From positions 1 to 26,463 of the IMG/VR virus record IMGVR_UViG_3300010883_000366: a stretch of 26,463 nt of DNA; one strand, given 5' to 3'. The notes beneath the pieces were generated by a model. It had not been told where the DNA came from and made no database searches. It worked only from the letters and a program-made list of their open reading frames with translations. The translations under genes were made by a program, and so were the position numbers. This document shows, piece by piece, positions 3,719-26,082 of this stretch. How positions within the stretch are numbered: the first letter of the stretch is position 1; each line of letters begins with the position of its first letter. This DNA comes from a virus.

Positions 3719-3748
3719 TCTTATTTATTAATTTTATATTATTATATT
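3719..3748 (+). promoter_or_regulatory. A/T-only leader before the scaffold gene
   Basis: The 30 nt between portal and scaffold are almost entirely A and T and end in ATTATATTATG, with ATG as the start codon. There is no Shine-Dalgarno purine block. The same 11 bases end the leader at 6527-6537. It may be a start context for Bacteroidota ribosomes, a late promoter, or both; the sequence alone does not decide. Confidence 0.3.
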
Positions 3749-4990: not shown

Positions 4991-5001
4991 AATTAACAAT
5001 T

Positions 5002-6450: not shown

Positions 6451-6463
6451 TATTTATTGTAAT

Positions 6464-6511
6464 AGTTACCCTTGTAAAAACTACAGGGGTAATTGTTACT
6501 CTTATTTTAAC
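6464..6511 (+). terminator. Intrinsic-type terminator after the major capsid gene
   Basis: Bases 6466-6476 (TTACCCTTGTA) pair with 6482-6492 (TACAGGGGTAA) in an 11-bp stem with one T-G wobble and a 5-nt loop (AAAAC). Two more pairs (G-T and A-T) can extend the stem to 6464-6494. A T-rich tail (GTTACTCTTATTTT) follows. It lies 13 nt past the capsid stop codon. It probably limits read-through from the capsid gene or stabilises the 3' end of its message, like the terminator after the T7 capsid gene. Confidence 0.8.
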
Positions 6512-6534
6512 AAACTATTTAATTATATTATATT
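6512..6534 (+). promoter_or_regulatory. A/T leader after the capsid terminator, possible promoter
   Basis: Between the hairpin and the next ATG is an A/T-rich stretch ending in ATTATATTATATTATG. It shares its last 11 bases with the leader before the scaffold gene. Since transcription probably drops at the upstream hairpin, a promoter here would make sense, but I see no clear Bacteroidota -33 TTTG / -7 TAnnTTTG pair. Confidence 0.25.
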
Positions 6535-7308: not shown

Positions 7309-7325
7309 CCTGTAATACTAATATA

Positions 7326-7345
7326 AGGCCCGTTGTTTCGGGCCT
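7326..7345 (+). terminator. GC-rich hairpin between the unknown gene and the ring gene
   Basis: AGGCCCG (7326-7332) pairs perfectly with CGGGCCT (7339-7345) around a 6-nt loop TTGTTT. The 7-bp stem is the most GC-rich spot in this AT-rich region. There is no clean T tract after it (CATATTATAATAAA), so it may be a weak terminator or an RNA-processing or stability element. A possible TTG start at 7333 lies in the loop and is unlikely to be used. Confidence 0.6.
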
Positions 7346-7368
7346 CATATTATAATAAAAAAACACAA

Positions 7369-8280: not shown

Positions 8281-8283
8281 TCA

Positions 8284-9480: not shown

Positions 9481-9483
9481 TAA

Positions 9484-12400
9484 ATGGCAGAAATCAAAAA
9501 TACCTTTTTAAAAGGTAAAATGAATCAAGACTTAGACGCTAGACTTGTTCCTAACGGAGAGTATAGAGAAGCTACTAATTTACAAGTTAGTAGATCAGAA
9601 GGATCAACCGTGGGTGAGTTTGAAAACATTTTAGGTGATTTAGCAATTGCCAGCACTGGTTCAAGCTCTGTAAAAATAATAGGTTATTTTTCTGACACTA
9701 CAAATAATATTATTTATTATTTTGCTAGTAATTTTTATGATACAGACTCAAGTGTAAGAGCAGCAAGCACTAACATATGTAAAATATTTTCTTACAATAT
9801 AGACACTAATCAAAACGTAGAACTAGTTAGAGGTTATTGGTTGAACTTTAATCAAGCTTTCCCTATACATGCTGTTAATTTAGTAGAAGAGTTGTTATTT
9901 TTTACTGATAATTTAAACCAACCTAGAAAAATAAACATTTCAAAAGCAAACCCTGGGCAATTAGCAGTTCCAATTTATTATTATAACGAAGACCAAATAT
10001 CTGTAGCTAAATATTATCCTTTTGAAACAATAATAGCTTTTGATAGATTTAACACTAGAGTAGATGGACTCGTAAGTAATAGTAATATAGTTGTTTTAGG
10101 TGATTCAGCTGGTACTATCCAGGTAGGTGATATAGTAAATGATTGGGATAGAGATTTTGAAACAACAATACAAATAACAACTTTAATTACTGTAATAGAA
10201 ATTACCGGCAGTAAAACAGTCAAGTTATCTGAAGCTGTTACGTTACCAGACGCTTTTCATATTCAATTTAGCAGACCAACAATGACAAGCAAAGCTAGCA
10301 AGGAAGTTAGTAACTTTAATTTAGTAGAAATTTATTCTGGTTCTGCAGTTGCAGGAACAGCCGTTGGTCCTAATGTTGGTGATGGTATATTTTTACCTAC
10401 TACTAATTTAAATTCTACTCCTACTATAGGCATGTACGTTACTTGTCCTTCTGATGACGCTGGTTTTGGAAGTAGTGGTTTTGGAGCTACCCCAAGCAAT
10501 ACTGGTGTTATAACATCGGTTTTAATAGATGGTATATATACAAAAATAACAGTTGACGTAACTAATACTTTAGCAGCTTTAAGTAATCCTGACATTTTAG
10601 TGGGCCAAAACCCTAGTTATGATGCTCTTTGGAAAGGTGACCCGGATCTTTTAAAACAAGAGTATGTAAGATTTAGTTATAGACTTAGATATGTCGATGG
10701 AGAATATTCTTTAATGGCTCCATTTACTCAAATAATGTTTATACCACAACAATATGGAGAATTTGGAAAAGGTATTCGTACTCAAGATCAAGACATGGAA
10801 GAAGCTTATAAAAGCACTATAATATCTTGGATGCAAAATAATGTAGATAACGTTTTATTAAAAATTCCAATACCTAAAACAATATCATCAAGCTTAGCTT
10901 TAACAACAACCTCAACAGCCACGGCTCTTATAAATAATTTACATGTAGATTCTATCGATATTTTGTACAAAGAATCAGATTCTTTAGCTGTCAAAGTTTT
11001 AGATACAATAAATATAACATCAACAACTGTTTTTAGTGACTTATTTTTTAGAGATTTAATAAACGGTAATGGAACTAGATATTATTACAATTATAACTAT
11101 GAATCTAGTAAACCATATAAAACTTTACCAGAAGGCCAAACAACTAGAGTCTATGATAAAGTTCCAGTAAAAGCTTTATCACAAGAAATTATAGGAAATA
11201 GAGTAGTATATGGTAATTACATAGACAAACATAGCAGTCCACTATCTATAAACTATAGCGCAACCATTTCAGATAAATCAGTTACTTATGACAACTATAC
11301 TCAGTTTACTAATAGTTCTTTAAAAGAAAATAGAACATACCAAGCTGGTGTTGTTCTTTCTGATAGATACGGAAGACAATCTACTGTAGTTTTATCTTCT
11401 TTAGACGCTACACCTAATCAACCTGGGTCTACAATATTCTCTCCTTATAAAAAATACCAAGACAATAATGTTTTTTCATGGCTAGGTGATGCTATGAGAA
11501 TAACATTTAACGCGGCAATACCTACAACTACACCTGGACCAGGTGAATTTTCAGCAATAACAAAACCTCTTGGTTGGATGTCTTATAAGATTGTCATAAA
11601 ACAACAAGAGCAAGATTATTATAATGTATATCTTCCTGGTTTTGTTAACGGCTATCCTGTTGTGGAAGACGTAGATCAAGACGTAACAGTGTTTACAACC
11701 TTAATAGGTGACAACATAAATAAAATACCTAGAGATTTAACAGAAGTAAGTGGTCAACAAACTCAATTTAATAGTAGTGTAAGACTTTTTGGTAGAGTAA
11801 ACAATCCTAATATAAACAACAGGCAAAATGGAAGTCCAGTATATCCTTATACAAATCATTCCGAGCCCTACAATCAACAATATTATCCAGGTATAATATC
11901 AGATTCTGTAAGAAATATAACAACAATACAAGATGGAGAAATACAAACTTCTCCTTTTCAACCTGGAATTACTGCTGGTCCTTTTGAAAACTCTACAGGT
12001 AAAATGCCTTGGGGAACTACACCAGCTTTACAGCCTCTTTATAATGGTGACTCAAATCCTTATTATGCAGAAATTAACGTTGGTCAAAAGATTTTATCAA
12101 CAAACAACTTAAGTAGTACGCTGGCGTCAAAAAATAGAAGTAATCAACTAGGCGCAATATGCACAGCGTTTACTGGTGCTCAAAACATTAACACCATGGA
12201 GCCTTTTTTAACTGTATCAGAAACAGATCCAGTAGACTCTTTGTTAGAAATTTTTTGGGAAACTTCATCGTCTGGAGAATTATCTATACTTAATGAAAAT
12301 ATAAACGCACAATACGATGGGCTAACTACTATTACGGATCCTAATCAAACTTTTTTAGAAACTTACGAAGCAGGAGATAATATAGACTCTAGCTTTAGTT

Positions 12401-13758
12401 TTGTTGATGGTGGTGGACAATCTCGTACTAATTTAACTAGTGCAGTTATACAATCGATTACAGTTAACACAAATCCAATTCAAACAGTTGACATCAGAAC
12501 GTTTGGTTTAACAGAAAATACAGACGGAACTTATAAGTTAAAAACTGGTTCCCTAGCAACAACTGGTTTAGATGCTACTTTTTGGTATGGAACTAACTCG
12601 CCTACTTTAGATAATTATACTATAACGTATGCTACTGTCTACAGTGCTCCTAGTGGAAGCGTTTTTAACGACACCATAACTCAAAACGTTTTGCTGGAAA
12701 ACTCTACCCCAGGAACTTTAGTAGGAACACAATGCCCTATAACTTTAAGTGGGGTTGACGCTCCATCTGTTAATGATACTATTATATTTAATTACCTAAC
12801 AGGTGAAACAGTAACAATTGGATCTAACCCAGCAGTGTCTAACTATGGTAAAATGGACAACGGAAGTGTTGATGCTACTAATTTACAGTCAGAATTAACA
12901 TTTGCAATACAAACACAAGTGGATACTAATGGCGTTGTAAGTATATTTGAATTTGCTAATACAACAGATGGTGTATTAAGAGTTAAATCTAGTTCAACAA
13001 TGGTATCAGGTGAAACTTACACTATACTGGTTGATGTTACTGATAATAATGGTGATACTAGTGGTACCGTTCCTTACACTGGTATAACTTACTCTTGTTC
13101 GTTATCGTTTACGGTTGGTGCGCAACACATAAACAGAGCGCCTTGTAATGGTCCTGTAATGCCAGCTAACATTGGTTGTGGTAACTACAGACAAATATGG
13201 GCGTTTGTTAATTCAATATCTCAAACAGGAACATCAGGCGGACTAGGCACTTACCCTCAAACAGGTATACCAGGTATAATATATGGAACTTCTAATAATT
13301 ACACTTATTACAACGTAGCCGTTGCTTACACGCCAACAACTAGTAATGGTGGTTTAAATTCTGGAGCAGTACTTTATATAACACCAACTCTTAGGTTTAC
13401 TAATCCAGGTGGGGTTACAAGTAATAGTGCCAATGTTTATTATACTATACAGTATAGAAGTAGCTCAGGTAGTTCATGGACTCAAGCTGTTTATTTTAAA
13501 AAACAAATAGGAACTGGCTCTATAGTTACAGCAACTGCAACTATTGGAACAGCTAACTATGTTAGTGGTCAATATTTAAGTGGCGGAGCTACAGATTACA
13601 AAACTAAATATTGGTTTAACGTAACTGGAGAATATAGAGTATTAACAAGTTATGTACAAGGACCAATCTGTTCTACTAGCGCTGCTAGTACAGTTACTTT
13701 CTTTCCAGACTTTGGAGATGGTGAATATAATAATCAATGTTCTTTAGGTCCATTGTAA
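9484..13758 (+). CDS. Giant tail muzzle / nozzle-like protein with C-terminal adhesion-like domains
   Basis: This 1424-residue protein probably forms the distal tube (muzzle) of the short tail and may touch the cell surface. The N-terminus (NTFLKGKMNQDLDARLVPNGEYREATNL split across residues 6-33, followed by VGEFENILGDL) is a hallmark I associate with crAss-like tail stabilisation or muzzle proteins. So are LLFFTDNLNQPRKINI (about 137-152) and, near 560-640, IGNRVVYGNYIDKHSSP and RTYQAGVVLSDRYGRQS. Repeating short beta patterns suggest a propeller. Residues about 1065-1195 look cadherin-like (LENSTPGTLVGT, then DVTDNNGD). The last ~200 residues are S/T/G/Y/N-rich with four cysteines near 1221, 1232, 1396 and 1419. 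No signal peptide or clear catalytic motif is seen. The next gene looks like part of the same structure. Confidence 0.75.
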   Translation: MAEIKNTFLKGKMNQDLDARLVPNGEYREATNLQVSRSEGSTVGEFENILGDLAIASTGSSSVKIIGYFSDTTNNIIYYFASNFYDTDSSVRAASTNICKIFSYNIDTNQNVELVRGYWLNFNQAFPIHAVNLVEELLFFTDNLNQPRKINISKANPGQLAVPIYYYNEDQISVAKYYPFETIIAFDRFNTRVDGLVSNSNIVVLGDSAGTIQVGDIVNDWDRDFETTIQITTLITVIEITGSKTVKLSEAVTLPDAFHIQFSRPTMTSKASKEVSNFNLVEIYSGSAVAGTAVGPNVGDGIFLPTTNLNSTPTIGMYVTCPSDDAGFGSSGFGATPSNTGVITSVLIDGIYTKITVDVTNTLAALSNPDILVGQNPSYDALWKGDPDLLKQEYVRFSYRLRYVDGEYSLMAPFTQIMFIPQQYGEFGKGIRTQDQDMEEAYKSTIISWMQNNVDNVLLKIPIPKTISSSLALTTTSTATALINNLHVDSIDILYKESDSLAVKVLDTINITSTTVFSDLFFRDLINGNGTRYYYNYNYESSKPYKTLPEGQTTRVYDKVPVKALSQEIIGNRVVYGNYIDKHSSPLSINYSATISDKSVTYDNYTQFTNSSLKENRTYQAGVVLSDRYGRQSTVVLSSLDATPNQPGSTIFSPYKKYQDNNVFSWLGDAMRITFNAAIPTTTPGPGEFSAITKPLGWMSYKIVIKQQEQDYYNVYLPGFVNGYPVVEDVDQDVTVFTTLIGDNINKIPRDLTEVSGQQTQFNSSVRLFGRVNNPNINNRQNGSPVYPYTNHSEPYNQQYYPGIISDSVRNITTIQDGEIQTSPFQPGITAGPFENSTGKMPWGTTPALQPLYNGDSNPYYAEINVGQKILSTNNLSSTLASKNRSNQLGAICTAFTGAQNINTMEPFLTVSETDPVDSLLEIFWETSSSGELSILNENINAQYDGLTTITDPNQTFLETYEAGDNIDSSFSFVDGGGQSRTNLTSAVIQSITVNTNPIQTVDIRTFGLTENTDGTYKLKTGSLATTGLDATFWYGTNSPTLDNYTITYATVYSAPSGSVFNDTITQNVLLENSTPGTLVGTQCPITLSGVDAPSVNDTIIFNYLTGETVTIGSNPAVSNYGKMDNGSVDATNLQSELTFAIQTQVDTNGVVSIFEFANTTDGVLRVKSSSTMVSGETYTILVDVTDNNGDTSGTVPYTGITYSCSLSFTVGAQHINRAPCNGPVMPANIGCGNYRQIWAFVNSISQTGTSGGLGTYPQTGIPGIIYGTSNNYTYYNVAVAYTPTTSNGGLNSGAVLYITPTLRFTNPGGVTSNSANVYYTIQYRSSSGSSWTQAVYFKKQIGTGSIVTATATIGTANYVSGQYLSGGATDYKTKYWFNVTGEYRVLTSYVQGPICSTSAASTVTFFPDFGDGEYNNQCSLGPL

Positions 13759-13789
13759 AAAGCAAGTAAAAACAAGTAATAATTAATAT

Positions 13790-15148
13790 ATGGGAGTTAC
13801 GATTGAAGTAGGTTATTTTAATACCTTTGCATTAAAGAGATTAGCAAGCACTGCAATTCCGCAAGTAGCTGATTTACCTGAAGATTGGTTTGTAGAAGAA
13901 TCTAGAATCAAAGGTGGTTATAATAACACTACTGTTGACTTTGGGGTTAAAGCTTATTTAGTAGAAGAACAAGCTGAGTCTGCTAGAAGAGGTAACTCAT
14001 TAATATATTCTGGTATTTATAATTCTAGAACTGGTATAAACCAAACAAATCAATTTAGCGTATCACAAGATATCACTAGAAGCGTAGATCCGGTTGGTGG
14101 AACTATACAAAAATTATTTGCTGAAGACACTAATTTAATTATATTTCAAGAGAAAAAAGTAAATGGAGCTTTAATAGACAAAGATGCTATATTCACAGCA
14201 GAAGGTTCTGCTATAACTACATCAGGCAGATTAGTTATAGGACAAATAACTCCTTATCAAGGCAACTGGGGCATCGGAACTAACCCAGAATCATTTGCGG
14301 TGTATGGATTTAGAAAATACTTTGTAGATAGAAACAGAAACGCTGTTTTAAGACTGTCTAGAGATGGTATAACTGAAATATCAAACTATGGCATGACTGA
14401 TTTCTTTAGAGATCAACTAGGCGCTATAACTTCAACAGGATTAATTACCGGTGGCTATGATATACACAATCAAAACTACATAGTAAGCATGAAACCTACG
14501 TTTACTTCAAGTTATAAAACTTTAGCGTTTGACGAAAGATCACAAGGTTGGACTACGTTTTATACTTACAATCCTAGTTTTATTACAAGTTTAAAAGGTA
14601 ATACTTACAATAGCTTTAATGGGAAATGGTATCAATGCTACGTTGATACACAACCAAGAAATTCATTTCACGACTTAAGCGCTTCTCCTAGTACCGTTAA
14701 GTTTATATTAAACCCTGCTGCAGATAAAATGAAAAACTTTAACACAATAAGTTACGAAGGTACTAATGGGTGGGAAGTAACGTCAATTGTTAGTGACGAA
14801 ACTGGTTGGACTGAAAACAACCCTGCTTTTGTATCAGACACAGCTTCAACTATATGGAGTTACGATCAAGGTCAATATCAAGAAGGAGGTATTACTCAAT
14901 ACGCAGGTTTTGCTAGAAAACAAAACAACTATGTTGCGGCTATAAAAAATAACACACCTGCTCAAACCGGTGAGGTTGTTTTTGGTGACTCGCTTATGGG
15001 TATAAAAGGTTACAACGTAGTAGTTACAATGCAAACAGACACAACAAGACCTGTAACAGCTAATAGTCAAACAGTACAGTTAACCGCTACAGATGAGAAC
15101 GGATTAAAAGAATTATTTAGCGTAGGCTCTACATTTAATATAGAATAA
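13790..15148 (+). CDS. Tail muzzle companion protein (C-terminal muzzle-like)
   Basis: This 452-residue structural protein is beta-rich. Blocks such as NSLIYSGIYNSRTGINQTN (about residues 70-88), EDTNLIIFQEKKVNGALIDKDAIF (split across about 111-134), FAVYGFRKYFVDRNRN and LRLSRDGITEISNYGM (about 165-200) resemble what I remember as the C-terminal part of crAss-like muzzle or stabilisation proteins. Here it is a separate gene: an in-frame TAA at 13784-13786 lies just upstream of the ATG, so it is not a simple frameshift extension of the previous gene. It is preceded by 31 nt containing two CAAGTAA copies. It probably packs against the 1424-residue protein to complete the tail tip. No enzyme motif is visible. 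Confidence 0.7.
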   Translation: MGVTIEVGYFNTFALKRLASTAIPQVADLPEDWFVEESRIKGGYNNTTVDFGVKAYLVEEQAESARRGNSLIYSGIYNSRTGINQTNQFSVSQDITRSVDPVGGTIQKLFAEDTNLIIFQEKKVNGALIDKDAIFTAEGSAITTSGRLVIGQITPYQGNWGIGTNPESFAVYGFRKYFVDRNRNAVLRLSRDGITEISNYGMTDFFRDQLGAITSTGLITGGYDIHNQNYIVSMKPTFTSSYKTLAFDERSQGWTTFYTYNPSFITSLKGNTYNSFNGKWYQCYVDTQPRNSFHDLSASPSTVKFILNPAADKMKNFNTISYEGTNGWEVTSIVSDETGWTENNPAFVSDTASTIWSYDQGQYQEGGITQYAGFARKQNNYVAAIKNNTPAQTGEVVFGDSLMGIKGYNVVVTMQTDTTRPVTANSQTVQLTATDENGLKELFSVGSTFNIE

Positions 15149-15153
15149 ATTTT

Positions 15154-15561
15154 ATGGAATTAAATATTAGAAAGCTTGAAGAAAGCGATTGGGATACGTT
15201 AGTATCCTGGTGGGATGCTTGGCCTGAATGGACAAACCCACCAAAAGATTTTTTACCAGACAATGGCACAGGAGGTTTTATAGTAGAAAAAAACGGTTTA
15301 CCAATAGTGGCTGGTTTTATGTATTTTACTAACTCTAAAGGAGTTTTACTAGAATGGATAGTTTCTAGTCCTACTTATAGAGAAGATGACAGACAAGAAG
15401 CTTTAGAGTTTTTAATTAATACTTGTGAAGACTTTATAAGACAAGCAGGTAAAAAATATATTTTTAGTATTGGTAGAAATAAACATTTAATAAAAACTCA
15501 TAAAAAACTAGGATACAACGTGGACACTAAAAGTTCACATGAAATTATAAAAACAATTTAA
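15154..15561 (+). CDS. Small GNAT-like acetyltransferase
   Basis: This 135-residue protein has the outline of a GNAT N-acetyltransferase, which moves an acetyl group from acetyl-CoA to an amine. Seen: an N-terminal IRKLEESDWDTL strand-helix, a central LPIVAGFMYFTNSKGVLLEW beta segment, WIVSSPTYREDDRQEAL, and a closing strand and helix with HLIKTHKKLGYNVDTK, typical of GNAT C-termini. The acetyl-CoA pyrophosphate loop (Q/R-x-x-G-x-G/A) is not obvious; the equivalent place reads YREDDRQEA, so activity is uncertain. It sits inside the virion gene block, 5 nt after the muzzle companion and 1 nt before the first cargo gene, so it is made late. The target may be a virion or host protein; this is inference. 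Confidence 0.68.
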   Translation: MELNIRKLEESDWDTLVSWWDAWPEWTNPPKDFLPDNGTGGFIVEKNGLPIVAGFMYFTNSKGVLLEWIVSSPTYREDDRQEALEFLINTCEDFIRQAGKKYIFSIGRNKHLIKTHKKLGYNVDTKSSHEIIKTI

Positions 15562-15562
15562 T

Positions 15563-16261
15563 ATGGCAGCAATAACAGCATCAGTAGCCGCAACAGTAGG
15601 TGGAAACATAGTTAAAGGCATAGGCGCAAGAAACGCAAGTAAAAGAAACGCGGCAAAAGCACAAGCAGCTAGAAGAGCTATAAGTGACTTAGAAAACGGA
15701 AGACAAGATGCTATAAACCCATTTGATAACCAAAGTAGCTTAGCTGACATGGCTCAAGACCTTAGTGGATCTATGAACAATCCTATGGCTAACTTAGGTG
15801 TTGCAACTCAAGCTGCAGAAATGCAAGCTGAAGAGGCTGATATAGCATTAGCAAACACCCTAGATACTCTTAGAGCTACAGGGGCGGGGGCTGGTGGAGC
15901 CACTGCATTAGCGCAAGCTGCGCTTAAAAGTAAAAAAGGTATTAGTGCTAGTATAGAATCACAAGAGGCGCAAAACAACCAATTAAGAGCTCAAGGAGAA
16001 GCAGATTTACAAAGAAGACAAACAGCCGAACAACAAAGAGTGCAAGGAATGCAGATAGACGAAGGTGTTAGAGTACAAAACGCCGAGTCTCAAGGTAGAG
16101 CATTTCAATTCAACACGCAAGAAAGTAGAGACAATACAAAACTAGGTAGATTATACGGCCAACAAGCAAGTGCTGAAGCAAATGAATCACAAGCAAGAGC
16201 GGCTGGAGTAAACGCTTTAGCCGGTGGTTTAACAGGTTTAGGCGCTTTAGGAGGATTATAA
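15563..16261 (+). CDS. Small internal virion / ejection-like protein
   Basis: This 232-residue protein is rich in A, Q, G and N and has no cysteine. It starts with a weakly hydrophobic A/G/V stretch (ITASVAATVGGNIVKGIGA) and continues with long amphipathic helices (about residues 25-215), for example EQQRVQGMQIDEGVRVQ. It ends with a G/A/L segment (AGGLTGLGALGGL). This composition, with glycine-rich hydrophobic ends and an Ala/Gln helical middle, resembles podovirus ejection proteins such as T7 gp14 and P22 gp7, which enter the host envelope with the DNA. It is the first and smallest of three proteins in rising size order, like T7 gp14-gp15-gp16. Function is inferred from composition and position, not from motif matches. 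Confidence 0.6.
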   Translation: MAAITASVAATVGGNIVKGIGARNASKRNAAKAQAARRAISDLENGRQDAINPFDNQSSLADMAQDLSGSMNNPMANLGVATQAAEMQAEEADIALANTLDTLRATGAGAGGATALAQAALKSKKGISASIESQEAQNNQLRAQGEADLQRRQTAEQQRVQGMQIDEGVRVQNAESQGRAFQFNTQESRDNTKLGRLYGQQASAEANESQARAAGVNALAGGLTGLGALGGL

Positions 16262-16279
16262 TAAATAAATAAAAACAAA

Positions 16280-18037
16280 ATGGCACAAGAAGCAGGATAC
16301 CCATTATATGTTGTAAAACCGTATGATGAAAACGAAATAAAATCAATAGCTGATCCATATACAAAATTAGCCGCTAGAATGAGCGCTCAAAAACAAGCTT
16401 ATACTCTTAAGCAACAAGCTTTAAGAAACTCAGAAGCAAAAGCTGTTTATGAATCAGAAAGTGAACTAAATAAAGTTGTTAAAATTGGTGGCGCAACTTA
16501 CGAAACAAACGCGCAAGACTTGTTTAGAAAAGTAATTAGTGATGGTATTGATATCCAGAACGGTATAGCCACAGGCAATATAGACCCTTCTACAGGCGCT
16601 AGAGCTTTAGTTAGTTTAAACGCTACTTTTGATTCTTATAAAAGAAACGCACCAAATGTTTTAGCAATGGCAAAATACGCTGAAAGTGTAGGAGCAGGTG
16701 GATTCGATACTTCTTCAAAATTAAATGATCCAAATTTAGGAATACTTCTAAAAAAACTTCAAAACAGTAGCAGTGAAGTAAGTTTAGCACAAGTGGAAGG
16801 TACTTTAATTTTAAAAGGCAAAGGAACTATTATAGATTCTTTTGGAAAAGAAATACCCTGGGAATATGACCTTAATATAGATGAATTTGAAAAACAATTT
16901 GCAAACGGAGGCACTCAAATTATAAAAACAGTGCCAACAAAAGAAGAGCTAGGATTAGAAGGTATAGCAAAGCCTTTAATGGCTGCGATGAACGCTCAAG
17001 GTAACTATAAACAGATTAAAGAAAAAAACGGCCAAACAAGTACTTCTGAATATTTTAATATAGACGAAATGAAAGCAGCATTAGTGGGGCAAAATAGCAC
17101 TGCTGTGGACTCTATAATAAGAGGAGGTGACGCTGATATTATATGGGCTGACATGTTTATGAAAGGTCACAATATAGATTATCTTAAAGATAATAATTTA
17201 TTATGGGATCCAGCAAGTAGTGTAGAGCACACTATAGAAAGCACTACAGGAGTTGAATACAAAGGAAACATGTTGAATATTATGAAACAATATTTGGCTG
17301 ATGAAATTATAGCAATGATACCACCTTCTCAACAGGTTATGTTTGAAAAAGATCAAGATGGAAATCCTAATCCATATGGAGATATAATACCTCATGACAG
17401 TAATTATACGTGGAACGAAAATTTAAAAGAAAATGAAAAAGAAGAAGATTTAACTGACGCTCAAAAAACATTTGATATATATAGTAGAGATCCTTTATTT
17501 GAAATGGAAAATGCTTTAATAGACAGCGGAAAAAACCCTGGCGCAACTGTTTCTGAAAAATCAGGAGTATATACAATAACGTTTCCAGAAACGGATATTA
17601 GAAAAGCTACAAAAGTAGATTATAATATGTACGAAAAAAATGATTTTATTCGATTTTATAGATCAATACGTAATTTAAATGATAGGTTTGAAGGTACAAG
17701 CGATAAAGCCGGACAAAGTAAAGAAGAGTTTGATAAAATAGTAAACGAAGGTTGGTTAAAATTTGAAAAAGAATTTAAAAGCTCCGGAACAGACCCTGTT
17801 CAAATGCCTCATAAACAGCGAGTAACTGAAATGTTAAAAAATATAACTAAAGATGGTTACTATGGAGTGTTAAGTAAAGCTGAAGAAAAAACATTAAGGA
17901 ATTTTGCAAAAAATGAATTTAGTTCTAAAAAGGATAACGTTTATGAGGGTCAAGAGCAATGGGATATAGAGTTAGAAATAGCGCTACAAAGGCGATTAGA
18001 CTTTTTAAGGAGTGATGTAACAGAACAATCTAAGTAA
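16280..18037 (+). CDS. Medium internal virion / cargo-like protein
   Basis: I do not recognise a domain in this 585-residue protein. It is hydrophilic, K/E/D/N-rich and mainly helical in appearance, with no signal peptide or membrane segment. The N-terminus (GYPLYVVKPYDENEIKSIADPYTKLA, split across residues 6-31) precedes a helical region to about residue 130. A mixed alpha/beta middle follows (about 150-300), then an acidic stretch (ENEKEEDLTDAQ, about 385-396) and a charged helical C-terminus. It lies 2 nt before the giant cargo gene and 18 nt after the small one, so it is probably the middle partner in the ejection set. An assembly chaperone or structural cargo are both possible. Confidence 0.5.
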   Translation: MAQEAGYPLYVVKPYDENEIKSIADPYTKLAARMSAQKQAYTLKQQALRNSEAKAVYESESELNKVVKIGGATYETNAQDLFRKVISDGIDIQNGIATGNIDPSTGARALVSLNATFDSYKRNAPNVLAMAKYAESVGAGGFDTSSKLNDPNLGILLKKLQNSSSEVSLAQVEGTLILKGKGTIIDSFGKEIPWEYDLNIDEFEKQFANGGTQIIKTVPTKEELGLEGIAKPLMAAMNAQGNYKQIKEKNGQTSTSEYFNIDEMKAALVGQNSTAVDSIIRGGDADIIWADMFMKGHNIDYLKDNNLLWDPASSVEHTIESTTGVEYKGNMLNIMKQYLADEIIAMIPPSQQVMFEKDQDGNPNPYGDIIPHDSNYTWNENLKENEKEEDLTDAQKTFDIYSRDPLFEMENALIDSGKNPGATVSEKSGVYTITFPETDIRKATKVDYNMYEKNDFIRFYRSIRNLNDRFEGTSDKAGQSKEEFDKIVNEGWLKFEKEFKSSGTDPVQMPHKQRVTEMLKNITKDGYYGVLSKAEEKTLRNFAKNEFSSKKDNVYEGQEQWDIELEIALQRRLDFLRSDVTEQSK

Positions 18038-18039
18038 AT

Positions 18040-21000
18040 ATGGAAAAATTATATACATTACCAGGTTATGACGAACCTGTTTCAATTACGGATGAAGATA
18101 AAGAAATTTTTTTAAATCTTCATTCAGACGCAGTTTTATATGAACCAGTAAAGCAAAACGATCCTGCTGTAAATGCAAAGGCCAATGTAGGATCGACAAC
18201 AAGTACGGCTTCAATATCGGAAAATGGTTCTTCGGAGTACAATCAAACAGATGAAAAAGGAAATAAATTTAAACAACCAGTTAAAGATTTTTTAAAAGAG
18301 AAGCTATATGGTACAGCTTTTGGGAATTTACTTATGCCTAGCGGAAAAGATTACCAAAACCAAATTAAAGCCAATAAAATAGACAACGAAACTGCCGAGG
18401 AAACTAAAGTTTTGATGGAGAATGCAATTCGGTTAACTGACGATGAAATAAACCTTGCGAGTGAAGAAGCAGACAATTTAGATTTTACACCTACAATAAA
18501 AACAACCGGTGGTTGGCGAGATAGTGGCACAGGAACATCATTTTATGAGAAAGAAAGCACTACAACTACTCAACCTTATGAAGAAATAATAGACCAAGCA
18601 AAAAGATATTTACAAAAAAACAATGGAGATACTTCAAAAGAAAACATTGAAAGAGTTGCTAGATTAATTTATAGAGATGAAGTTTTAGAGAATGTGATTA
18701 ACACAAAAGCTAATTCGTTTTTTGATGAATTAGATAACATACCATTACAATTTGCTGTTAAAAAAATTGTAGGAGAAAAAATAATAGAACAAAGTTATTC
18801 TTTACCAGAAGAACATAAAAAAATTACCGCATTAGTTGATGCTTTTGAGAATCAAAATACAGCCCTAAATAAAAACATTGAATCTTTCCTTAGCGCTATT
18901 AACAATCCAGATTATGAATATACAGATTTAGAAGAAGGAGAAGAAATGGTAGAGTTTGGTTATAATCTTCAAACGAATGAACCTCATCGTGTGCCCTTGA
19001 AAGTTGTTAATAAATTAAACGACTTGTTAACTGAAAAAAAACTAAACGGTGATGTTTTACGAAAAAGAGGAATAAAATTTATTGACGACACAAAAGAATA
19101 CGAATATAAACTTAAAGATTTAGATTTATTAGGTAGAGATTTTGATTTAGCAAACAAACTAGCATCCACAGCTGGAACTAGTATAATGCAATTAGGTAGA
19201 GGTATTGAAAGCGCTAGTATAGATGCTAAATTGTTAATTAATTCACATCTTTTTGACCCAGGAGCTATTACGCGTGACAGATTATTAAAAGAAAGACAAG
19301 TAGAATTAGATGAACAAAAATCAATGGCCAGCAAATATATGCAAGAAGAATACGCGCCAGACATAAGTTTTGGAAACGCTTTTGATTCTTGGGGTAATTT
19401 TGGAGAATGGTCTACCTTAGCTTTAGCTGGTCAAACAGGTACGTTGCTAATGTTAGCTACTGGTAGAGTTGGTTTACTAGGTCTTGGTATTAGTACTTAT
19501 GGTACAAAACTCTCTGATATAAGAGAATTTGACAAAGCTAATGAAACAAGAACAACAGGTCTAAACGCTCGTTTATCTGCTCTTGGTTTTGGATTATCAG
19601 AAGTTTTTTTAGGCGCAATGCCAACGTTTAGACTTTTGAATAAATCTTCAAAAAGCATGGGTGAAAACATTACTAGAAGTTTTTATAAAGGCAAGATAGA
19701 TTATATCAAAAGAAATGTTGATATATTACCTGCTGCATTTGCTACTGAATACGTTAGCGAAGGAGCTACTCAGTTAAGTCAAAATATTATAGATATTTTA
19801 GCTGGAAAATTACAAAAATCTCAAGTTATGCGAGGTGTTGATGAAGCTGCTTTTACTGGAGGTTTGCTAGGTCCAGCAATAACAAGTGTTCCATTTGCAA
19901 GAGGTATTGTTTTGTCTCATTTTTCTGACTGGAAATCTACACAAGAATTTAGAGACAACGCTGTTGAAATAGGAAAGCTTAACGAAGCTATTGAAAACAT
20001 GGACAAGCGTACTACTATGTACAAATACACAATGTCAGAAATCAATAGATTAACTGAAAATAATTACAATATATTACAAAACATAGAAGGAAATTTAGAG
20101 TTAACTAAAGACGGTTTTAATAATTTTCAAAGAGTAAGTGAAGAGCAAGAAATACAAAGAGCTTTATTTGAAAGTTATGATGCTGACAAAACAATGGACA
20201 ATAGCACTAAGCTTGGGCTCATTAAAGGACTAAAAAGAAAATTTGATATATTAGAGATTCAAAGACAAACTTACAAACAAGATTTTGGTATTTTATTTAA
20301 TATTGTTCCTGTTGAGGAACAAAAAACTTGGTTAGATCAAGCGGCTAAAGAATTAGGGCTTACACAAGGTATAGATTCTGATAAAAAAATAAAAGACAAA
20401 GCTGTAGAGCTTTTTCAAAAAGATAGATTAGAAAAAACAAACAATATTTCTTTAAAAGCGTTAAACGCGTTAGGAAAAGCAGGTGTAAATGTTTCTCATC
20501 AATACGAGGATAGCAATTCAAATTTATTAGCAAAAGTTAAAGAAGAAATAGAAAGCTTAATAGAACAAGGTTTTTATACTGAAGAAAATGGCAATAAACT
20601 TATTAAAGAAATAACTCAAGATATAAACAGTGGTGATGTAAATGGTGCAAATATAGTTTGGACAGACAAAAATGGTAAAATAAACTATTCTATATATGTA
20701 TCTAAAACCAACGCACTTTTAAATGGCAAAACAGAAGTGGCAATTCATGAAATAGGGCATACTTTGTTTATAGAAGCAGTTAAAAATGACATGATGGCAT
20801 ACAGTGTTCTCGCGCAAGAGGTGTTAAACTACTTAGAAGTAAACAACAGCGCTATGTACAATAGAATAGTTGTGGCATCAAATAACCAAACTCCTGATGA
20901 GGTTTTAACTAATTTTCTTGAAGAAGTTTCAAGTGGAAGATTTGAAATAGAAGCAAATTTAAAAGCAAATCCAAAAACAAAAGGATTTTGGGCCAGTATA

Positions 21001-24000
21001 GGTAAAATTATTGGAAGTACAACGTCAAAAATAACAAATACAAAAGAAGCTCTTGCTTTTACTGGAGCTAGCGATGTGGTTTCGTTTTTAGCAACATTAG
21101 GTGATAAGTTAAGGTCGGGTACTTTAAAAATGAGTGATGTTAAAAATTTACAAAAAAAAGGTATAGCTGGAGTAAAACCAGGTGAATTAAACTTAAAAAT
21201 AAAAACCCCGACAGTTAAGCTTTCAGTAACTAGCATGTCTCAAGCTTTTGATAATGTAGTTAAAAACAAAAACTTTGCAGACAACGAAGACTTTAGAAAC
21301 AGAGACAACGGAAAGTTTTTAAACGAAGCGTTAAACCTTGTAGAAACAAATCAGTCTTATAATAGTTATGTAAACGGTTTAATAACCGCAGACATAAACA
21401 CAGGATCTTTACCTGCTGAAACTAGACAAGATATAAATAGAAAAGTAAAAGAAGCTGTTAAAGATAGAATTATGTTAAATTATAATCCTAACTATCAAGG
21501 AAAGCCTTTTAGCTTATTTAGTTTTATTTATGGTAACAAATTTGGAAAAGGTGGAAGAACTGAAAGCGCTTTTAAAGACGTTAAAAAAGCATATGCTACA
21601 ACCGTATCTACTATTCCGTTGACTAACGAAGCTGGTGGTGCGTTTGATGTTTTAGACACGAGCAAAGGTTCTGATGAAATGTTTGATGATAAAGTAAAAG
21701 CAAAAGCTAAAAGAAGGCCAAGATCTAAACTAGGACAAGGTATAACTTTAAGAGGTAAAAAATTAATTACTACAGAAAACGCACAGGGTCTTACTTTAGA
21801 ACAAGAAATAGAAGTTGCTGCTTTAGAAACTTTTAAAGGATCTATGCCTGAGGTTGAAAGTAAGAAATTCAAAGACTTTGTTTTAAATCAAGAAAACAAA
21901 ATAAGAAAAAGCATACAAAACAGAGTTAAATCTACTAAAGACTTTCAACAAGTATTAAAAGAGTTTTTACCTTTGTATAAAAACTACCCGTTATCTTATT
22001 TAGTTCAAATGGATAAAAGAAACGACAATAAAACATTAGTAACGGCAATAAAACAAAATCTTAGTTCTAAAGAAGTTGATATAGCTATTAAAGAAAATAA
22101 ACTTCCTAAAAACACAAGTAGAACCTCTGGCCCTACTTTATACAAACACGCTTCGCCTAGCGTTAGTCAATTGAATAACTTCTTTTTTAGTAATGATTTA
22201 AACCCGTCTACTAAAGGAACAAGAAAAGACGCTTTTTTTAGAGGTTTAGCAGCTCAAATGCTTTTTGATATGGCTCCTTCAGCAGCTAGAGCATCTGGCA
22301 TGCCGTCTTTAGATATAACTAAAATGTCATCAACACTAAACGTTGAACCTGTTATAAAGTTTAGTCAATCCTATATTTTTGATGCAAATTTAGGAGGTAG
22401 ATTAAAAGTAGATACTTTGTTAGAAGCTGCAAAGCTAGATAAAACTATGAATCTTGGTGTTAAAGTTTTAACAGAAACAGGTAGAAAAGAAATAGTAGAT
22501 TTAATAAAAAACGAAATTATTGTATTATTACCTAAACAGGCTTGGGTAGGTAGAAATGGCGCTAACGTATTTACAACATCAGGAAAAGATTGGGGAAACA
22601 TTAGCATGACCAGTGATAAAGTTGGGGGAGCGGCGCTAAATCAATTAAGAGCAGATATAAACGCTATGCTTGAAGCTCAACCCGCTAGTGCGTTTGGTGC
22701 GGATATAAAATATACAGTAGAGCAAAATGGAAAAACTATTATAAAAACTTTAGACAGTTTTACCGTGTCTAATTATAGTACTATATTTAAAGACGGTCGT
22801 AGCGAAGAAGATATAAAAGCCAAAGCAGAGGCGTTTAACGATAGGGTGGCAATAATACATAGCGCTTTGTGGAGTAGAATAAACAAAGCTATAAATAAAG
22901 ACGTTAATAAAGCATCGGCAATAGCTACATATTTAAAACTAACAGCTAACCACACTGGTCATTGGCACAAGTTAGGTGCTCAAATATGGGGTTACTCACC
23001 AAATCCAAAAGGTATTAAAAAAATTAACAAAATCACTGGTAAAGTTATAACAACAAAACGTGAAATGGAGCATGCTGTTCCTGCTACTGCTGCTTATTTA
23101 TATTTACTACAAGTTGCTATCAATAATAGTGGTTTAACAAATACTGATTTTAAAACAGCCTATGATTTATTAATAAAAAATTATAAATTAATAGGTTTAG
23201 ACAAAAATGTAGAAACTAAACTTGGTAAAGCTAAGTTAGCTAGAAAAATGCCTAAGGACTGGAATATATTAGATAATTATTGGTGGCAAAGGTATTTTAA
23301 CGAAGCAATGTTTTTACAAGAAGGAGGTATTGATCCAAGAAGTGTAATAAACTTAGACGGCAAAAATATGTTTGAGCTTTTTAAAATAGGTTATGACGGA
23401 AAACAAACTACTTTAAAATTACTACAAGATGGTGACGCTGCTGCTAAGGTTAATTTAAACGTGTTTGGTATAAAATTATCTATGCAAAACAATTCTAGTG
23501 GTCAAATGCAGAACCTTGCTAAATACGACAAAGCAGCTTCTTTAGCTAGAAGCTATAGCACGCCAACTAAAAAAATAAGAGTATTTGATTTTGATGATAC
23601 TTTAGCTAAATCTAAATCTAACGTGCTTTACGTGATGCCTAACGGATCTAAAGGAAAATTAAATGCTACAGAGTTTGCTAAAAAATCTGAAACATTAGAG
23701 TTGCAAGGAGCTATTTTTAATTTTGAACAATTTAACAAAGTTATTGATGGTAAAAAAGGTCCTTTATTTGAATTAGCTAAAACTATGTCTGAAGCCAAAG
23801 GTAAAAGAGATATTTTTGTTCTAACGGCAAGACCACAAGCTTCCGCTAACGCTATACATGAGTTTTTAAAAGGCGTTGGATTAAATATACCTATTACTAA
23901 CATAACAGGATTAGAAAATGGATCACCACAGGCTAAGGCTGATTGGGTTATAAACAAAGCTTCTGAAGGTTATAATGATTTTTATTTTGCTGATGACGCA

Positions 24001-26082
24001 ATTAAAAACGTCAAAGCTGTAAAAGAAATACTATCACAAATAGATGTTAAGTCTGAAGTTCAATTAGCTAAGTTTAGCAAAATGACTAATCTAGACACTG
24101 TCATAAATAATATGATAGAGAAATCTACTGGTATAGAATCTTTCAAAGAGTATTCTTATTCAAAAGCTAAAAGAATAGGAGAAAACAAAGGTAAATATAA
24201 TTTCTTTATTCCTCCTTCGGCTGAAGATTTTGCAGGTCTAATGTATCCATTATACGGTAAAGGCAAGCAAGGCGACGCGGATATGAAATGGATAAAAGAA
24301 AACGTGTTTGATCCTTACAATCAAGCTGAAAACGCGTTAACACAAGCTAAAACATCTGTTGCTAATGACTATAAAAAATTAAAGAAAAACTTTAAAAACA
24401 TACCTAAAACATTAAAAAAACAAGCTTTTGATGGTTTTACATACATGGACGCTGTAAGAGTTTCTATTTGGACCGCTCAAGGTATGGAAATACCTGGTTT
24501 ATCTAAAAAAGATACTAAAGATTTGGTTGATTTTATAAAGAACGATAGTGATTTAGCAATATTTAGTAATGAACTAATTAAAATACAAAAAGGAAAACCA
24601 TACCCTGAACCCACTAAAGAATGGTTAGCAGGTACAATTACTACAGATATAATAGGCGGTATAAATAAAGTTAACAGAGCTGAATATTTACAACAGTGGC
24701 AAGAAAATGTAGATATATTGTTTTCAGATAAAAATAAAAATAAATTAAGAGCCGCTTTTGGCGATGGATACGTAGATGCTTTAGAAAACATCTTAGAAAG
24801 AATGAAAACTGGAAGCAATAGAGCTAGAAGCAACAACAAAATAGTTAACAATATTACTGATTGGATAAATAACTCTGTTGGTGCTATAATGTTCTTTAAT
24901 GCTAGATCTGCAGTTCTTCAAACTCTTTCTGCTGTCAATTTTATAAACTTTTCAGATAATAATATACTAAAAGCTGGCTTAGCCTTTGCTAATCAACCAC
25001 AGTATTGGAAAGATTTTATGTTTTTAATGAATTCTGATTATTTATTAGCTAGAAGAAATGGTTTAAAGATTAACGTAAGTGAGTCTGAAATAGCTGATGC
25101 AGTCGCGGATAGTAAAAACAAACCCAAAGCTGCTATAGCATACATATTATCTAAAGGGTTTTTACCTACACAGTTTGCGGATAGTTTTGCTATTGCTTCT
25201 GGTGGCGCTACGTATTATAGAAATAGAATAAAAAAATTAATGAAAGATGGTATGCCTCAAGAGTTAGCAGAGCAACAAGCTTTTTTAGATTTTTATGCTA
25301 TTTCAGAAGAAACACAACAATCTAGTAGAGCTGACCGTATTAGTATGCAACAAGCAAGTACAGCTGGTAGAGTTATATTAGCATTTGCTAATACTCCAAT
25401 GCAGTACATGAGATTACAGAAAAAAGCTATTCTTGATTTAAAAAACGGTAGAGGTGATGCAAAAACTCATATATCTAAAATAATATACTATGGGTTAGTT
25501 CAAAACTTTATATTTAACGCTATGCAAAACGCTTTATTTGCGTTAATATTTGATGATGATGACGATGATAGTGTACCAAAAAAGAAACAAATAAGAATAG
25601 CTAATGGTATGGCTGATTCTTTATTAAGAGGTACTGGTATTGCGGGAGCAGCTTTAGCTACTGTTAAAAATATAATTCTTAAATTATACGAAGAAAGTGA
25701 TAAAAAAAATCCTAAATACGAAGACGCAGCATTAGAGTTATTAACTTTTTCACCTCCAATTGATTCTAAAATTACTAAGTTTAGATCTGCTTTAAGAACT
25801 TTAAATTGGGATGCAGATGAGATTAAAGAAAAAGGTTTTAGTTTAGACAACCCAGCGTACATGGCAGGTGGCCAAATAATTTCAGCGTTTACAAATATAC
25901 CATTAGATAGGGTGGTTAGAAAATATAACAACATATCAGCAGCAATGAAAAAAGATACTGAAACATGGGAAAGTATGGCTATGATAGCAGGTTGGTCTGA
26001 ATGGGAAATATTAGGACCTAAGGTTAAAGAAAAAAAGAAAAAAAATAAAGTTAAAGAAGAAAATCCAGGTATAGTATTTTAA
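18040..26082 (+). CDS. Giant polyvalent cargo protein with zincin and HAD domains
   Basis: This 2680-residue protein is probably packed in the head and delivered into the host at infection. Domains in order: a charged N-terminal region (1-450); hydrophobic G/A/L segments at about 458-487, 511-530 and 604-625, possible membrane-active parts; a zincin metallopeptidase core with H903-E-I-G-H907 and possible third ligand E961 or E962; a very basic patch (KAKAKRRPRSK, about 1221-1231); a His cluster (H1638, H1641, H1643; E1677-H1678) without an assigned role; a HAD phosphatase domain with D1850-F-D-D-T, T1929, K1966 and D1985-D1986; and a long conserved-looking C-terminal region from about 2285 with six aspartates (2505-2510) and a K-rich end. 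This matches the polyvalent proteins of phages, which combine several enzymes in one chain. It is last and largest in the cargo trio. No RNA polymerase motif is seen. Confidence 0.72.
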   Translation: MEKLYTLPGYDEPVSITDEDKEIFLNLHSDAVLYEPVKQNDPAVNAKANVGSTTSTASISENGSSEYNQTDEKGNKFKQPVKDFLKEKLYGTAFGNLLMPSGKDYQNQIKANKIDNETAEETKVLMENAIRLTDDEINLASEEADNLDFTPTIKTTGGWRDSGTGTSFYEKESTTTTQPYEEIIDQAKRYLQKNNGDTSKENIERVARLIYRDEVLENVINTKANSFFDELDNIPLQFAVKKIVGEKIIEQSYSLPEEHKKITALVDAFENQNTALNKNIESFLSAINNPDYEYTDLEEGEEMVEFGYNLQTNEPHRVPLKVVNKLNDLLTEKKLNGDVLRKRGIKFIDDTKEYEYKLKDLDLLGRDFDLANKLASTAGTSIMQLGRGIESASIDAKLLINSHLFDPGAITRDRLLKERQVELDEQKSMASKYMQEEYAPDISFGNAFDSWGNFGEWSTLALAGQTGTLLMLATGRVGLLGLGISTYGTKLSDIREFDKANETRTTGLNARLSALGFGLSEVFLGAMPTFRLLNKSSKSMGENITRSFYKGKIDYIKRNVDILPAAFATEYVSEGATQLSQNIIDILAGKLQKSQVMRGVDEAAFTGGLLGPAITSVPFARGIVLSHFSDWKSTQEFRDNAVEIGKLNEAIENMDKRTTMYKYTMSEINRLTENNYNILQNIEGNLELTKDGFNNFQRVSEEQEIQRALFESYDADKTMDNSTKLGLIKGLKRKFDILEIQRQTYKQDFGILFNIVPVEEQKTWLDQAAKELGLTQGIDSDKKIKDKAVELFQKDRLEKTNNISLKALNALGKAGVNVSHQYEDSNSNLLAKVKEEIESLIEQGFYTEENGNKLIKEITQDINSGDVNGANIVWTDKNGKINYSIYVSKTNALLNGKTEVAIHEIGHTLFIEAVKNDMMAYSVLAQEVLNYLEVNNSAMYNRIVVASNNQTPDEVLTNFLEEVSSGRFEIEANLKANPKTKGFWASIGKIIGSTTSKITNTKEALAFTGASDVVSFLATLGDKLRSGTLKMSDVKNLQKKGIAGVKPGELNLKIKTPTVKLSVTSMSQAFDNVVKNKNFADNEDFRNRDNGKFLNEALNLVETNQSYNSYVNGLITADINTGSLPAETRQDINRKVKEAVKDRIMLNYNPNYQGKPFSLFSFIYGNKFGKGGRTESAFKDVKKAYATTVSTIPLTNEAGGAFDVLDTSKGSDEMFDDKVKAKAKRRPRSKLGQGITLRGKKLITTENAQGLTLEQEIEVAALETFKGSMPEVESKKFKDFVLNQENKIRKSIQNRVKSTKDFQQVLKEFLPLYKNYPLSYLVQMDKRNDNKTLVTAIKQNLSSKEVDIAIKENKLPKNTSRTSGPTLYKHASPSVSQLNNFFFSNDLNPSTKGTRKDAFFRGLAAQMLFDMAPSAARASGMPSLDITKMSSTLNVEPVIKFSQSYIFDANLGGRLKVDTLLEAAKLDKTMNLGVKVLTETGRKEIVDLIKNEIIVLLPKQAWVGRNGANVFTTSGKDWGNISMTSDKVGGAALNQLRADINAMLEAQPASAFGADIKYTVEQNGKTIIKTLDSFTVSNYSTIFKDGRSEEDIKAKAEAFNDRVAIIHSALWSRINKAINKDVNKASAIATYLKLTANHTGHWHKLGAQIWGYSPNPKGIKKINKITGKVITTKREMEHAVPATAAYLYLLQVAINNSGLTNTDFKTAYDLLIKNYKLIGLDKNVETKLGKAKLARKMPKDWNILDNYWWQRYFNEAMFLQEGGIDPRSVINLDGKNMFELFKIGYDGKQTTLKLLQDGDAAAKVNLNVFGIKLSMQNNSSGQMQNLAKYDKAASLARSYSTPTKKIRVFDFDDTLAKSKSNVLYVMPNGSKGKLNATEFAKKSETLELQGAIFNFEQFNKVIDGKKGPLFELAKTMSEAKGKRDIFVLTARPQASANAIHEFLKGVGLNIPITNITGLENGSPQAKADWVINKASEGYNDFYFADDAIKNVKAVKEILSQIDVKSEVQLAKFSKMTNLDTVINNMIEKSTGIESFKEYSYSKAKRIGENKGKYNFFIPPSAEDFAGLMYPLYGKGKQGDADMKWIKENVFDPYNQAENALTQAKTSVANDYKKLKKNFKNIPKTLKKQAFDGFTYMDAVRVSIWTAQGMEIPGLSKKDTKDLVDFIKNDSDLAIFSNELIKIQKGKPYPEPTKEWLAGTITTDIIGGINKVNRAEYLQQWQENVDILFSDKNKNKLRAAFGDGYVDALENILERMKTGSNRARSNNKIVNNITDWINNSVGAIMFFNARSAVLQTLSAVNFINFSDNNILKAGLAFANQPQYWKDFMFLMNSDYLLARRNGLKINVSESEIADAVADSKNKPKAAIAYILSKGFLPTQFADSFAIASGGATYYRNRIKKLMKDGMPQELAEQQAFLDFYAISEETQQSSRADRISMQQASTAGRVILAFANTPMQYMRLQKKAILDLKNGRGDAKTHISKIIYYGLVQNFIFNAMQNALFALIFDDDDDDSVPKKKQIRIANGMADSLLRGTGIAGAALATVKNIILKLYEESDKKNPKYEDAALELLTFSPPIDSKITKFRSALRTLNWDADEIKEKGFSLDNPAYMAGGQIISAFTNIPLDRVVRKYNNISAAMKKDTETWESMAMIAGWSEWEILGPKVKEKKKKNKVKEENPGIVF
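20611..20940 (+). other. Zincin metallopeptidase core within the giant protein
   Basis: Codons at 20746-20760 encode HEIGH, the HExxH zinc-binding signature, at residues 903-907, preceded by a hydrophobic turn (KTEVAIHEIGHTLF). About 55 residues later, EVLTNFLEEVSSG (954-966) supplies an acidic residue that could be the third zinc ligand as in gluzincins. The beta segments before it (ANIVWTDKNGKINYSIYV) fit the edge strand of a zincin fold. The target may be a virion, host or cell-wall protein; this is unknown. Confidence 0.78.
23572..24060 (+). other. HAD-superfamily phosphatase domain within the giant protein
   Basis: All four HAD motifs are visible. Motif I is KKIRVFDFDDTLA, with nucleophile D1850 and acid D1852. 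Motif II is FVLTARP with T1929. Motif III is K1966 in GSPQAKAD. Motif IV is FYFADDAIKN with D1985 and D1986. The spacing resembles the polynucleotide 3'-phosphatase and nucleotidase types, so a nucleic-acid or nucleotide end is a possible substrate, but specificity cannot be read from the sequence. Confidence 0.82.

What the first reader, a model, noticed from the sequence alone, without database searches (positions are those of the whole stretch)
18040..26082. One 2680-residue protein joins zincin peptidase, HAD phosphatase and possible membrane segments
The sequence shows HEIGH at 903-907, four HAD motifs at 1850-1986, and G/A/L-rich hydrophobic segments at 458-625 in one uninterrupted frame at the end of a virion gene block. 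Phage polyvalent proteins delivered with the DNA are known to combine enzymes this way. If packaged, this chain would place a peptidase and a phosphatase in the host at the moment of infection, possibly to disarm defence or process host proteins or nucleic acid ends. This combination is the best candidate in the window for a poorly described system.
Basis: partly seen in the sequence, partly recalled or inferred. Interest (0 to 1): 0.68.

Follow-up and report, generated by a model that had tools for sequence, protein, structure and literature searches.

The report
Giant phage virion protein with enzymes
This gene encodes one huge protein of a marine phage related to flavobacterial phages, probably packed into the virus particle and sent into the bacterium with the DNA, that carries a real zinc-protease domain and a swappable phosphatase cassette resembling enzymes that repair broken DNA or RNA ends; the overall design is known, the phosphatase cassette (with a kinase nested in it in some relatives) appears not to have been described.

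Summary
Window 18040-26082 (+) is one open frame of 2680 aa with HEIGH at 903 and HAD motifs at 1850-1986. Both are real domains. Of 89 non-identical full-length relatives, 81 keep exactly one HExxH (0.6% of shuffled copies) and 54 carry DxDDT. H903, E904, H907 and E954 are invariant in 68 sequences; all four HAD motifs are invariant in 48. AlphaFold2 gives a zincin-like domain (nearest zincin in the PDB: anthrax lethal factor) and a HAD domain whose best, though tied, PDB matches are the Pnkp phosphatases. The "membrane segments" are only weakly hydrophobic, but that region is homologous to giant proteins in the same gene slot of cultured phages, two of which carry MS/MS proteomics evidence as virion proteins. 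The C-terminal 640 aa is the most conserved part and is structurally like polyvalent-protein C-termini. The HAD is a cassette, gained or lost about ten times. In four relatives a P-loop kinase sits inside the HAD cap. Verdict: a new variant of the known polyvalent virion protein, most likely delivered with the DNA; the zincin processes it or a host target, and the HAD heals nucleic-acid ends. Activities, and packaging of this very chain, are inferred.

The parts
18040..26082 (+). Giant polyvalent-type virion protein gene, 2680 aa
   Evidence: Uninterrupted ORF; last gene of the virion block, the slot held by 1.7-3.9 kaa proteins in related phages
18040..19284 (+). Variable N-terminal region, aa 1-415
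   Evidence: Poorly aligned and of very different length among relatives
19285..20271 (+). Helical, weakly hydrophobic domain, aa 416-744, shared with cultured-phage virion proteins
   Evidence: Profile matches elemoA gene 90 (E 3e-35), phi38:1 gp101 (9e-27), phi19:3 gp129 (2e-20), Panino giant (7e-17); hydropathy peaks 466-484, 512-530, 607-625
20374..20931 (+). Zincin-like metallopeptidase domain, aa 779-964
   Evidence: AlphaFold2 blocks of pLDDT about 83-98 with the helix/3-strand/2-helix order; anthrax lethal factor fold match Z about 7; profile also matches elemoA 1456-1677, E 1e-13
20746..20760 (+). HEIGH motif, aa 903-907
   Evidence: H903, E904, H907 invariant in 68 sequences
20899..20901 (+). 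E954, likely third zinc ligand
   Evidence: Invariant in 68 sequences; in the second C-terminal helix
23068..23073 (+). Conserved EH dyad (E1677-H1678) of an unidentified middle domain
   Evidence: Nearly invariant among 47 relatives
23572..24054 (+). HAD phosphatase cassette, aa 1845-2005
   Evidence: AlphaFold2 HAD Rossmannoid core; Pnkp1 Z 10.8 and T4 Pnkp Z 10.3, tied with other HADs at about 10; phrog_415 E 3e-5; optional cassette
23587..23601 (+). HAD motif I, D1850-F-D1852-D-T1854
   Evidence: D1850, D1852, T1854 invariant in 48 sequences
23824..23826 (+). HAD motif II, T1929 of LTAR
   Evidence: Invariant in 48 sequences
23935..23937 (+). HAD motif III, K1966
   Evidence: Invariant in 48 sequences
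23992..23997 (+). HAD motif IV, D1985-D1986
   Evidence: Invariant in 48 sequences
24088..26010 (+). Conserved all-helical C-terminal core, aa 2017-2657
   Evidence: Most conserved part (about 40-70% identity) in at least 396 viral contigs; all-helical model; fold matches to polyvalent-protein C-termini in BFVD
2..18037 (+). Upstream virion block: terminase, portal, capsid and tail genes
   Evidence: PHROG matches and gene-by-gene synteny

Best explanation
The gene encodes a polyvalent giant virion protein of a podovirus related to flavobacterial phages. It is most likely packed in the particle and sent into the host with the DNA. The helical weakly hydrophobic domain (aa 416-744) and the all-helical C-terminal core (aa 2017-2657) are the carrier: they hold the chain in the virion and take part in ejection. 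The zincin-like domain (aa 779-964) is a metallopeptidase that most likely cuts the chain itself to release its parts, or else cuts a host protein. The HAD domain (aa 1845-2005) is an interchangeable phosphatase cassette, most likely acting on phosphorylated DNA or RNA ends of the Pnkp kind, to heal damage that host defence inflicts early in infection. Shown here: the domains, their conservation, their modular spread, the synteny, and the record of virion mass spectrometry for homologues. Inferred: packaging of this very chain, both enzyme activities, substrates and timing.
For: ORF and motifs. HExxH in 81 of 89 relatives and HAD motif in 54 of 89, with near-constant HAD-to-core spacing. Invariant catalytic residues. 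AlphaFold2 models and fold matches. Synteny with phi38:1, Elemovirus and ctfjg026. N-terminal domain shared with cultured-phage giants. MS/MS notes on phi40:1 gp101 and phi18:3 gp123. HAD as a cassette needing about 10 gains or losses, absent in L078 beside sister L077. A P-loop kinase (phrog_505 polynucleotide kinase, AAA_33) nested in the HAD of L004, L052, L056 and L057. Zincins are the most common domain of polyvalent proteins, which sit near virion genes (PMC5512222). N4 vRNAP likewise has a membrane-binding N-terminus, an HExxH domain and a large helical C-terminus (PMC12633501). PNK-type HAD phosphatases are listed among jumbo-phage RNA repair enzymes (PMC7824862).
Against: phi40:1 gp101 and phi38:1 gp101 share only the roughly 330-aa helical domain, and phi38:1 gp101 (99.9% identical to phi40:1's) has no HExxH or HAD motif, so packaging of this architecture is not directly shown. 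No Pfam family reaches its cut-off in the window protein; MPTase-PolyVal is not found in the window or its relatives and LPD38 is not found in the close relatives tested. The Pnkp match of the HAD is tied with other HAD phosphatases. Eight of 89 relatives lack HExxH. The supposed membrane segments are weakly hydrophobic.
Confidence: 0.62

Rival explanations
1. The chain is packaged, but the HAD acts on nucleotides or signalling molecules (for example an alarmone or a defence second messenger) rather than on DNA or RNA ends.
For: The HAD model matches Nir2, class B and C acid phosphatases and other HADs almost as well as Pnkp (Z about 8-10); the inserted kinase also resembles zeta/PezT kinases (E 2.5e-4) as much as entries 4gp7/4gp6, which I recall as a Pnkp kinase domain.
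Against: phrog_415 and phrog_505, both labelled polynucleotide kinase, match the HAD and the inserted kinase; the two best fold matches are Pnkp phosphatases. Both are weak discriminators.
Confidence: 0.35
2. The zincin is an effector that cleaves a host protein in the cytoplasm after ejection, rather than a self-processing protease.
For: Iyer et al. list this as an alternative; N4 vRNAP is packaged unprocessed despite its HExxH domain (PMC5512222).
Against: Large multidomain chains and phage P1 DdrB processing favour autoproteolysis in that paper. Nothing here separates the two.
Confidence: 0.35
3. It is only a structural ejection or scaffold protein; HExxH and HAD are relics without activity.
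For: The carrier parts are the most conserved and the HAD is often absent.
Against: The catalytic residues are invariant in the aligned members that have each domain, which is not expected for relics.
Confidence: 0.08

Closest known systems
Phage polyvalent proteins (Iyer et al. 2017, PMC5512222)
   Same: Giant chain beside virion genes, zincin as the prominent enzyme, variable enzyme modules on conserved helical parts; C-terminal fold matches proteins annotated as polyvalent
   Different: HAD/PNK-type phosphatase cassettes are not mentioned in that paper's main text (supplement not read); no catalogued MPTase-PolyVal or LPD38 match in sequence
N4 virion RNA polymerase gp50 (Schitoviridae; PMC12633501)
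   Same: About 3,500-aa ejected chain with a membrane-associated N-terminus, an HExxH domain and a large all-helical C-terminal domain
   Different: No RNA polymerase domain was found here; HAD cassette instead; no homology to N4 gp50 was tested or claimed
Cellulophaga phi40:1 gp101, phi38:1 gp101, phi18:3 gp123, elemoA gene 90
   Same: Same gene slot and homologous helical domain; virion proteins by MS/MS in phi40:1 and phi18:3; elemoA also has the zincin
   Different: The C-terminal regions of phi38:1, phi19:3 and elemoA show no similarity to the core by HMM or profile comparison; phi38:1 and phi19:3 lack HExxH
T4 Pnkp and bacterial Pnkp1 (polynucleotide kinase/phosphatase)
   Same: HAD phosphatase fold, best PDB matches; a P-loop kinase accompanies the HAD in five relatives
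   Different: In four relatives the kinase lies inside the HAD cap instead of beside it; the window chain has no kinase; substrate untested

Membership tests
Phage polyvalent protein | Very long chain with two or more unrelated enzyme domains | tested here: met
   2680 aa with zincin-like and HAD domains by conservation and structure prediction
Phage polyvalent protein | Gene among late virion genes | tested here: met
   Last gene of the terminase-portal-capsid-tail block, syntenic with phi38:1, Elemovirus and ctfjg026
Phage polyvalent protein | Packaged in the virion and delivered with the DNA | tested here: inconclusive
   MS/MS annotation exists for homologues phi40:1 gp101 and phi18:3 gp123, which share only part of the chain; not measured for this chain
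Phage polyvalent protein | Catalogued polyvalent domains detectable by sequence (LPD38, MPTase-PolyVal) | tested here: inconclusive
   No LPD38 in the close relatives tested (only a sub-cutoff match in the Panino giant, E 1.8e-5), no MPTase-PolyVal in window or relatives, no Pfam hit above cut-off in the window protein. No single catalogued domain defines the class and the survey's other zincin clades were not available as models, so absence of these two does not exclude membership
Phage polyvalent protein | C-terminal region sharing a fold with known polyvalent proteins | tested here: met
   BFVD matches with E < 1e-3 over about 800 aa to ART-PolyVal, LPD and MuF-C proteins at 10-14% identity
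Zincin-like metallopeptidase | HExxH plus downstream Glu in a helix/3-strand/2-helix fold | tested here: met
   Invariant H903, E904, H907, E954; model; lethal factor fold match Z about 7
Zincin-like metallopeptidase | Peptidase activity | not testable with these tools
   Needs purified protein
HAD superfamily phosphatase | Motifs I-IV on a Rossmannoid core | tested here: met
   All four motifs invariant in 48 sequences; HAD fold matches up to Z 10.8
Pnkp-type polynucleotide 3'-phosphatase | Closer to Pnkp than to other HADs | tested here: inconclusive
   Top two fold matches are Pnkp but tied within 1 Z with others; no PDB sequence match
Pnkp-type polynucleotide 3'-phosphatase | Accompanying 5'-kinase domain | tested here: not met
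   Absent from the window protein; present in L003, L004, L052, L056, L057 only

The most novel reading that the evidence does not exclude
These phages deliver, inside their virions, a nucleic-acid end-healing enzyme: a HAD 3'-phosphatase cassette into whose cap a 5'-kinase has been nested in some lineages, carried by a self-cutting giant protein, so that repair of cleaved phage DNA or host tRNA can begin before any phage gene is expressed.
Probability: 0.27. Interest if true: 0.72.

Novelty: new variant of a known kind. Interest (0 to 1): 0.5.

Why it matters
It places a widespread but unnamed marine family (at least 396 viral contigs) in the polyvalent virion-protein class. It also points to a module, a PNK-like HAD with or without a nested kinase, that would let a phage bring end repair with it at the moment of entry. 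The sister pair L077/L078 and cultured relatives such as Elemovirus and phi40:1 make the idea directly testable.

Tried and rejected
Chance motifs: rejected by conservation and shuffles. True transmembrane helices: not supported by hydropathy. Foldseek on the PDB alone gave no match at E below 0.001 for either model; only the VIA second look resolved the domains. Profile searches of the PDB with the zincin and HAD-core alignments gave only coiled-coil or chance matches, and the HAD alone none. Homology of the C-terminal core to the giants of phi19:3, phi38:1, Panino, elemoA and ctfjg026 was tested by HMM and profile comparison and not found. POTRA match (E 0.025) rejected as sub-cutoff and in a helical stretch. 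A scan for relatives with the N-terminal half alone found none. The HAD segment alone has no convincing match in cultured phage records. A reversed Panino control reached E 3e-6 with the full N-terminal profile, so Panino's 7e-17 was read with caution. N4 gp50 homology of the core was not tested.

Full report
Observation. Window 18040-26082 on the + strand is a single open frame of 2680 aa with HEIGH at 903-907 and DFDDT at 1850-1854. Pfam gives nothing above its cut-offs; PHROGs gives only one significant family, phrog_415 (polynucleotide kinase), E 3e-5 over 1843-2014. The window record is a 26,463-base viral fragment.

Where it lies. The upstream genes are terminase, portal, capsid and tail genes. 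They align in order with Cellulophaga phage phi38:1 (Pervagoviridae), Flavobacterium phage elemoA and the environmental phage ctfjg026; the portal is 51% identical to ctfjg026, 41% to elemoA and 34% to phi38:1. In each of these, and in Maribacter phage Panino and phi19:3, the last gene of the block is a giant of 1,691-3,859 aa. The host is probably a flavobacterium: the cultured relatives infect flavobacteria, and the best host-genome matches to the core are in a Flavobacteriaceae bin (other matches lie in bins of unrelated taxa and may be mis-binned).

Family. A profile of the C-terminal core finds at least 396 viral contigs. In 89 non-identical full-length members, 81 have exactly one HExxH and 54 the HAD motif, against 0.6% and 0.06% of shuffled copies; 40 of 54 place the HAD motif 165-172 aa before the core. 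H903, E904, H907 and E954 are invariant in 68 sequences. D1850, D1852, T1854, T1929, K1966, D1985 and D1986 are invariant in 48. Members were chosen for having the motif when these alignments were made, so the telling residues are those outside the selection pattern: E954, T1929, K1966, D1985 and D1986.

Structure. The AlphaFold2 model of aa 430-1080 (mean pLDDT 74) has its best part at aa 779-964, with the strand and helix order of a zincin. The VIA second look finds anthrax lethal factor at Z about 7 with 156-174 residues aligned, among helical rows of similar Z that match other parts of the model. This is the same fold that Iyer et al. used to recognise the N4 zincin. The model of aa 1795-2680 (mean pLDDT 78) has a HAD fold at aa 1845-2001 and an all-helical C-terminus. 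The HAD's best matches are Pnkp1 (Z 10.8) and T4 Pnkp (Z 10.3, 20% identity), with other HADs within 1 Z. In BFVD the whole model matches uncultured-virus proteins at 29-46% identity and, at 10-14% identity over about 800 residues, many giant phage proteins, several annotated as ART-PolyVal, large polyvalent protein or MuF C-terminal.

Packaging. A profile of about aa 430-774 matches elemoA gene 90 (E 3e-35), phi38:1 gp101 (9e-27), phi19:3 gp129 (2e-20) and the Panino giant (7e-17); block-shuffled controls gave nothing with the full N-terminal profile, though a reversed Panino sequence reached 3e-6. The paper I believe to be the source could not be read here, so this rests on the GenBank notes.

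Cassettes. On a tree of the core, presence of the HAD needs about ten changes, nine forced by supported branches. The sister pair L077/L078 differs by a cassette containing the HAD, with closely matching sequence on the core side. Five relatives carry a P-loop kinase (AAA_33/zeta, phrog_505 polynucleotide kinase). In L052, L056, L057 and L004 it lies in the HAD cap shortly after motif I; in L003 a 75%-identical kinase lies after the zincin instead. L052/56/57, L004 and L003 sit in different parts of the tree, so the kinase has moved or been lost repeatedly. PDB matches of the kinase are PezT/zeta and entries 4gp7/4gp6, which I recall as a Pnkp kinase domain, so its substrate is open.

Mechanism and limits. 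The best-supported picture is a polyvalent virion protein: carrier helices on both sides, a zincin for processing or attack, and exchangeable phosphatase/kinase cassettes. PNK-type HADs are described as RNA-repair enzymes in jumbo phages (PMC7824862), but I found no mention of a HAD domain in the main text of the polyvalent-protein survey, and a library search combining polyvalent protein, polynucleotide kinase, phosphatase and virion returned only two papers; I read passages of the jumbo-phage review and did not open the other. Activities, substrate, and packaging of this exact architecture remain inferred.

Noticed in passing
L004, L052, L056, L057 (inside the HAD cap); L003 (after the zincin): A P-loop kinase domain is nested inside the HAD phosphatase shortly after motif I in four relatives, while a 75%-identical copy sits elsewhere in the chain of L003, so the kinase behaves as a mobile module.
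   Followed up: partly
window 9484-13758 and 13790-15148: The large virion protein that is one gene in phi38:1 (gp97), elemoA and ctfjg026 appears as two ORFs of 1424 and 452 aa here.
   Followed up: no
window aa 1677-1678 of the giant (23068-23073) and A6 relatives: A nearly invariant E-H dyad, often followed by xxPA, marks a middle domain with no known family.
   Followed up: partly
L100 and L108, region between zincin and core: In place of the EH segment these carry a stretch resembling a PD-(D/E)xK nuclease motif (IDIEF..IEVKKN).
   Followed up: no
L050, HAD cap: A different insert of about 46 aa sits at the same HAD cap position as the nested kinase, so this loop may be an insertion hotspot.
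   Followed up: no
L013 (ctfjg026 giant), aa 1615 and 2500: The ctfjg026 giant protein has two HExxH motifs in one chain.
   Followed up: no
PP540027.1 28792-29250 (Panino giant, C-terminal part): Sub-cutoff LPD38 match (E 1.8e-5), linking another giant in the same slot to polyvalent proteins.
   Followed up: no
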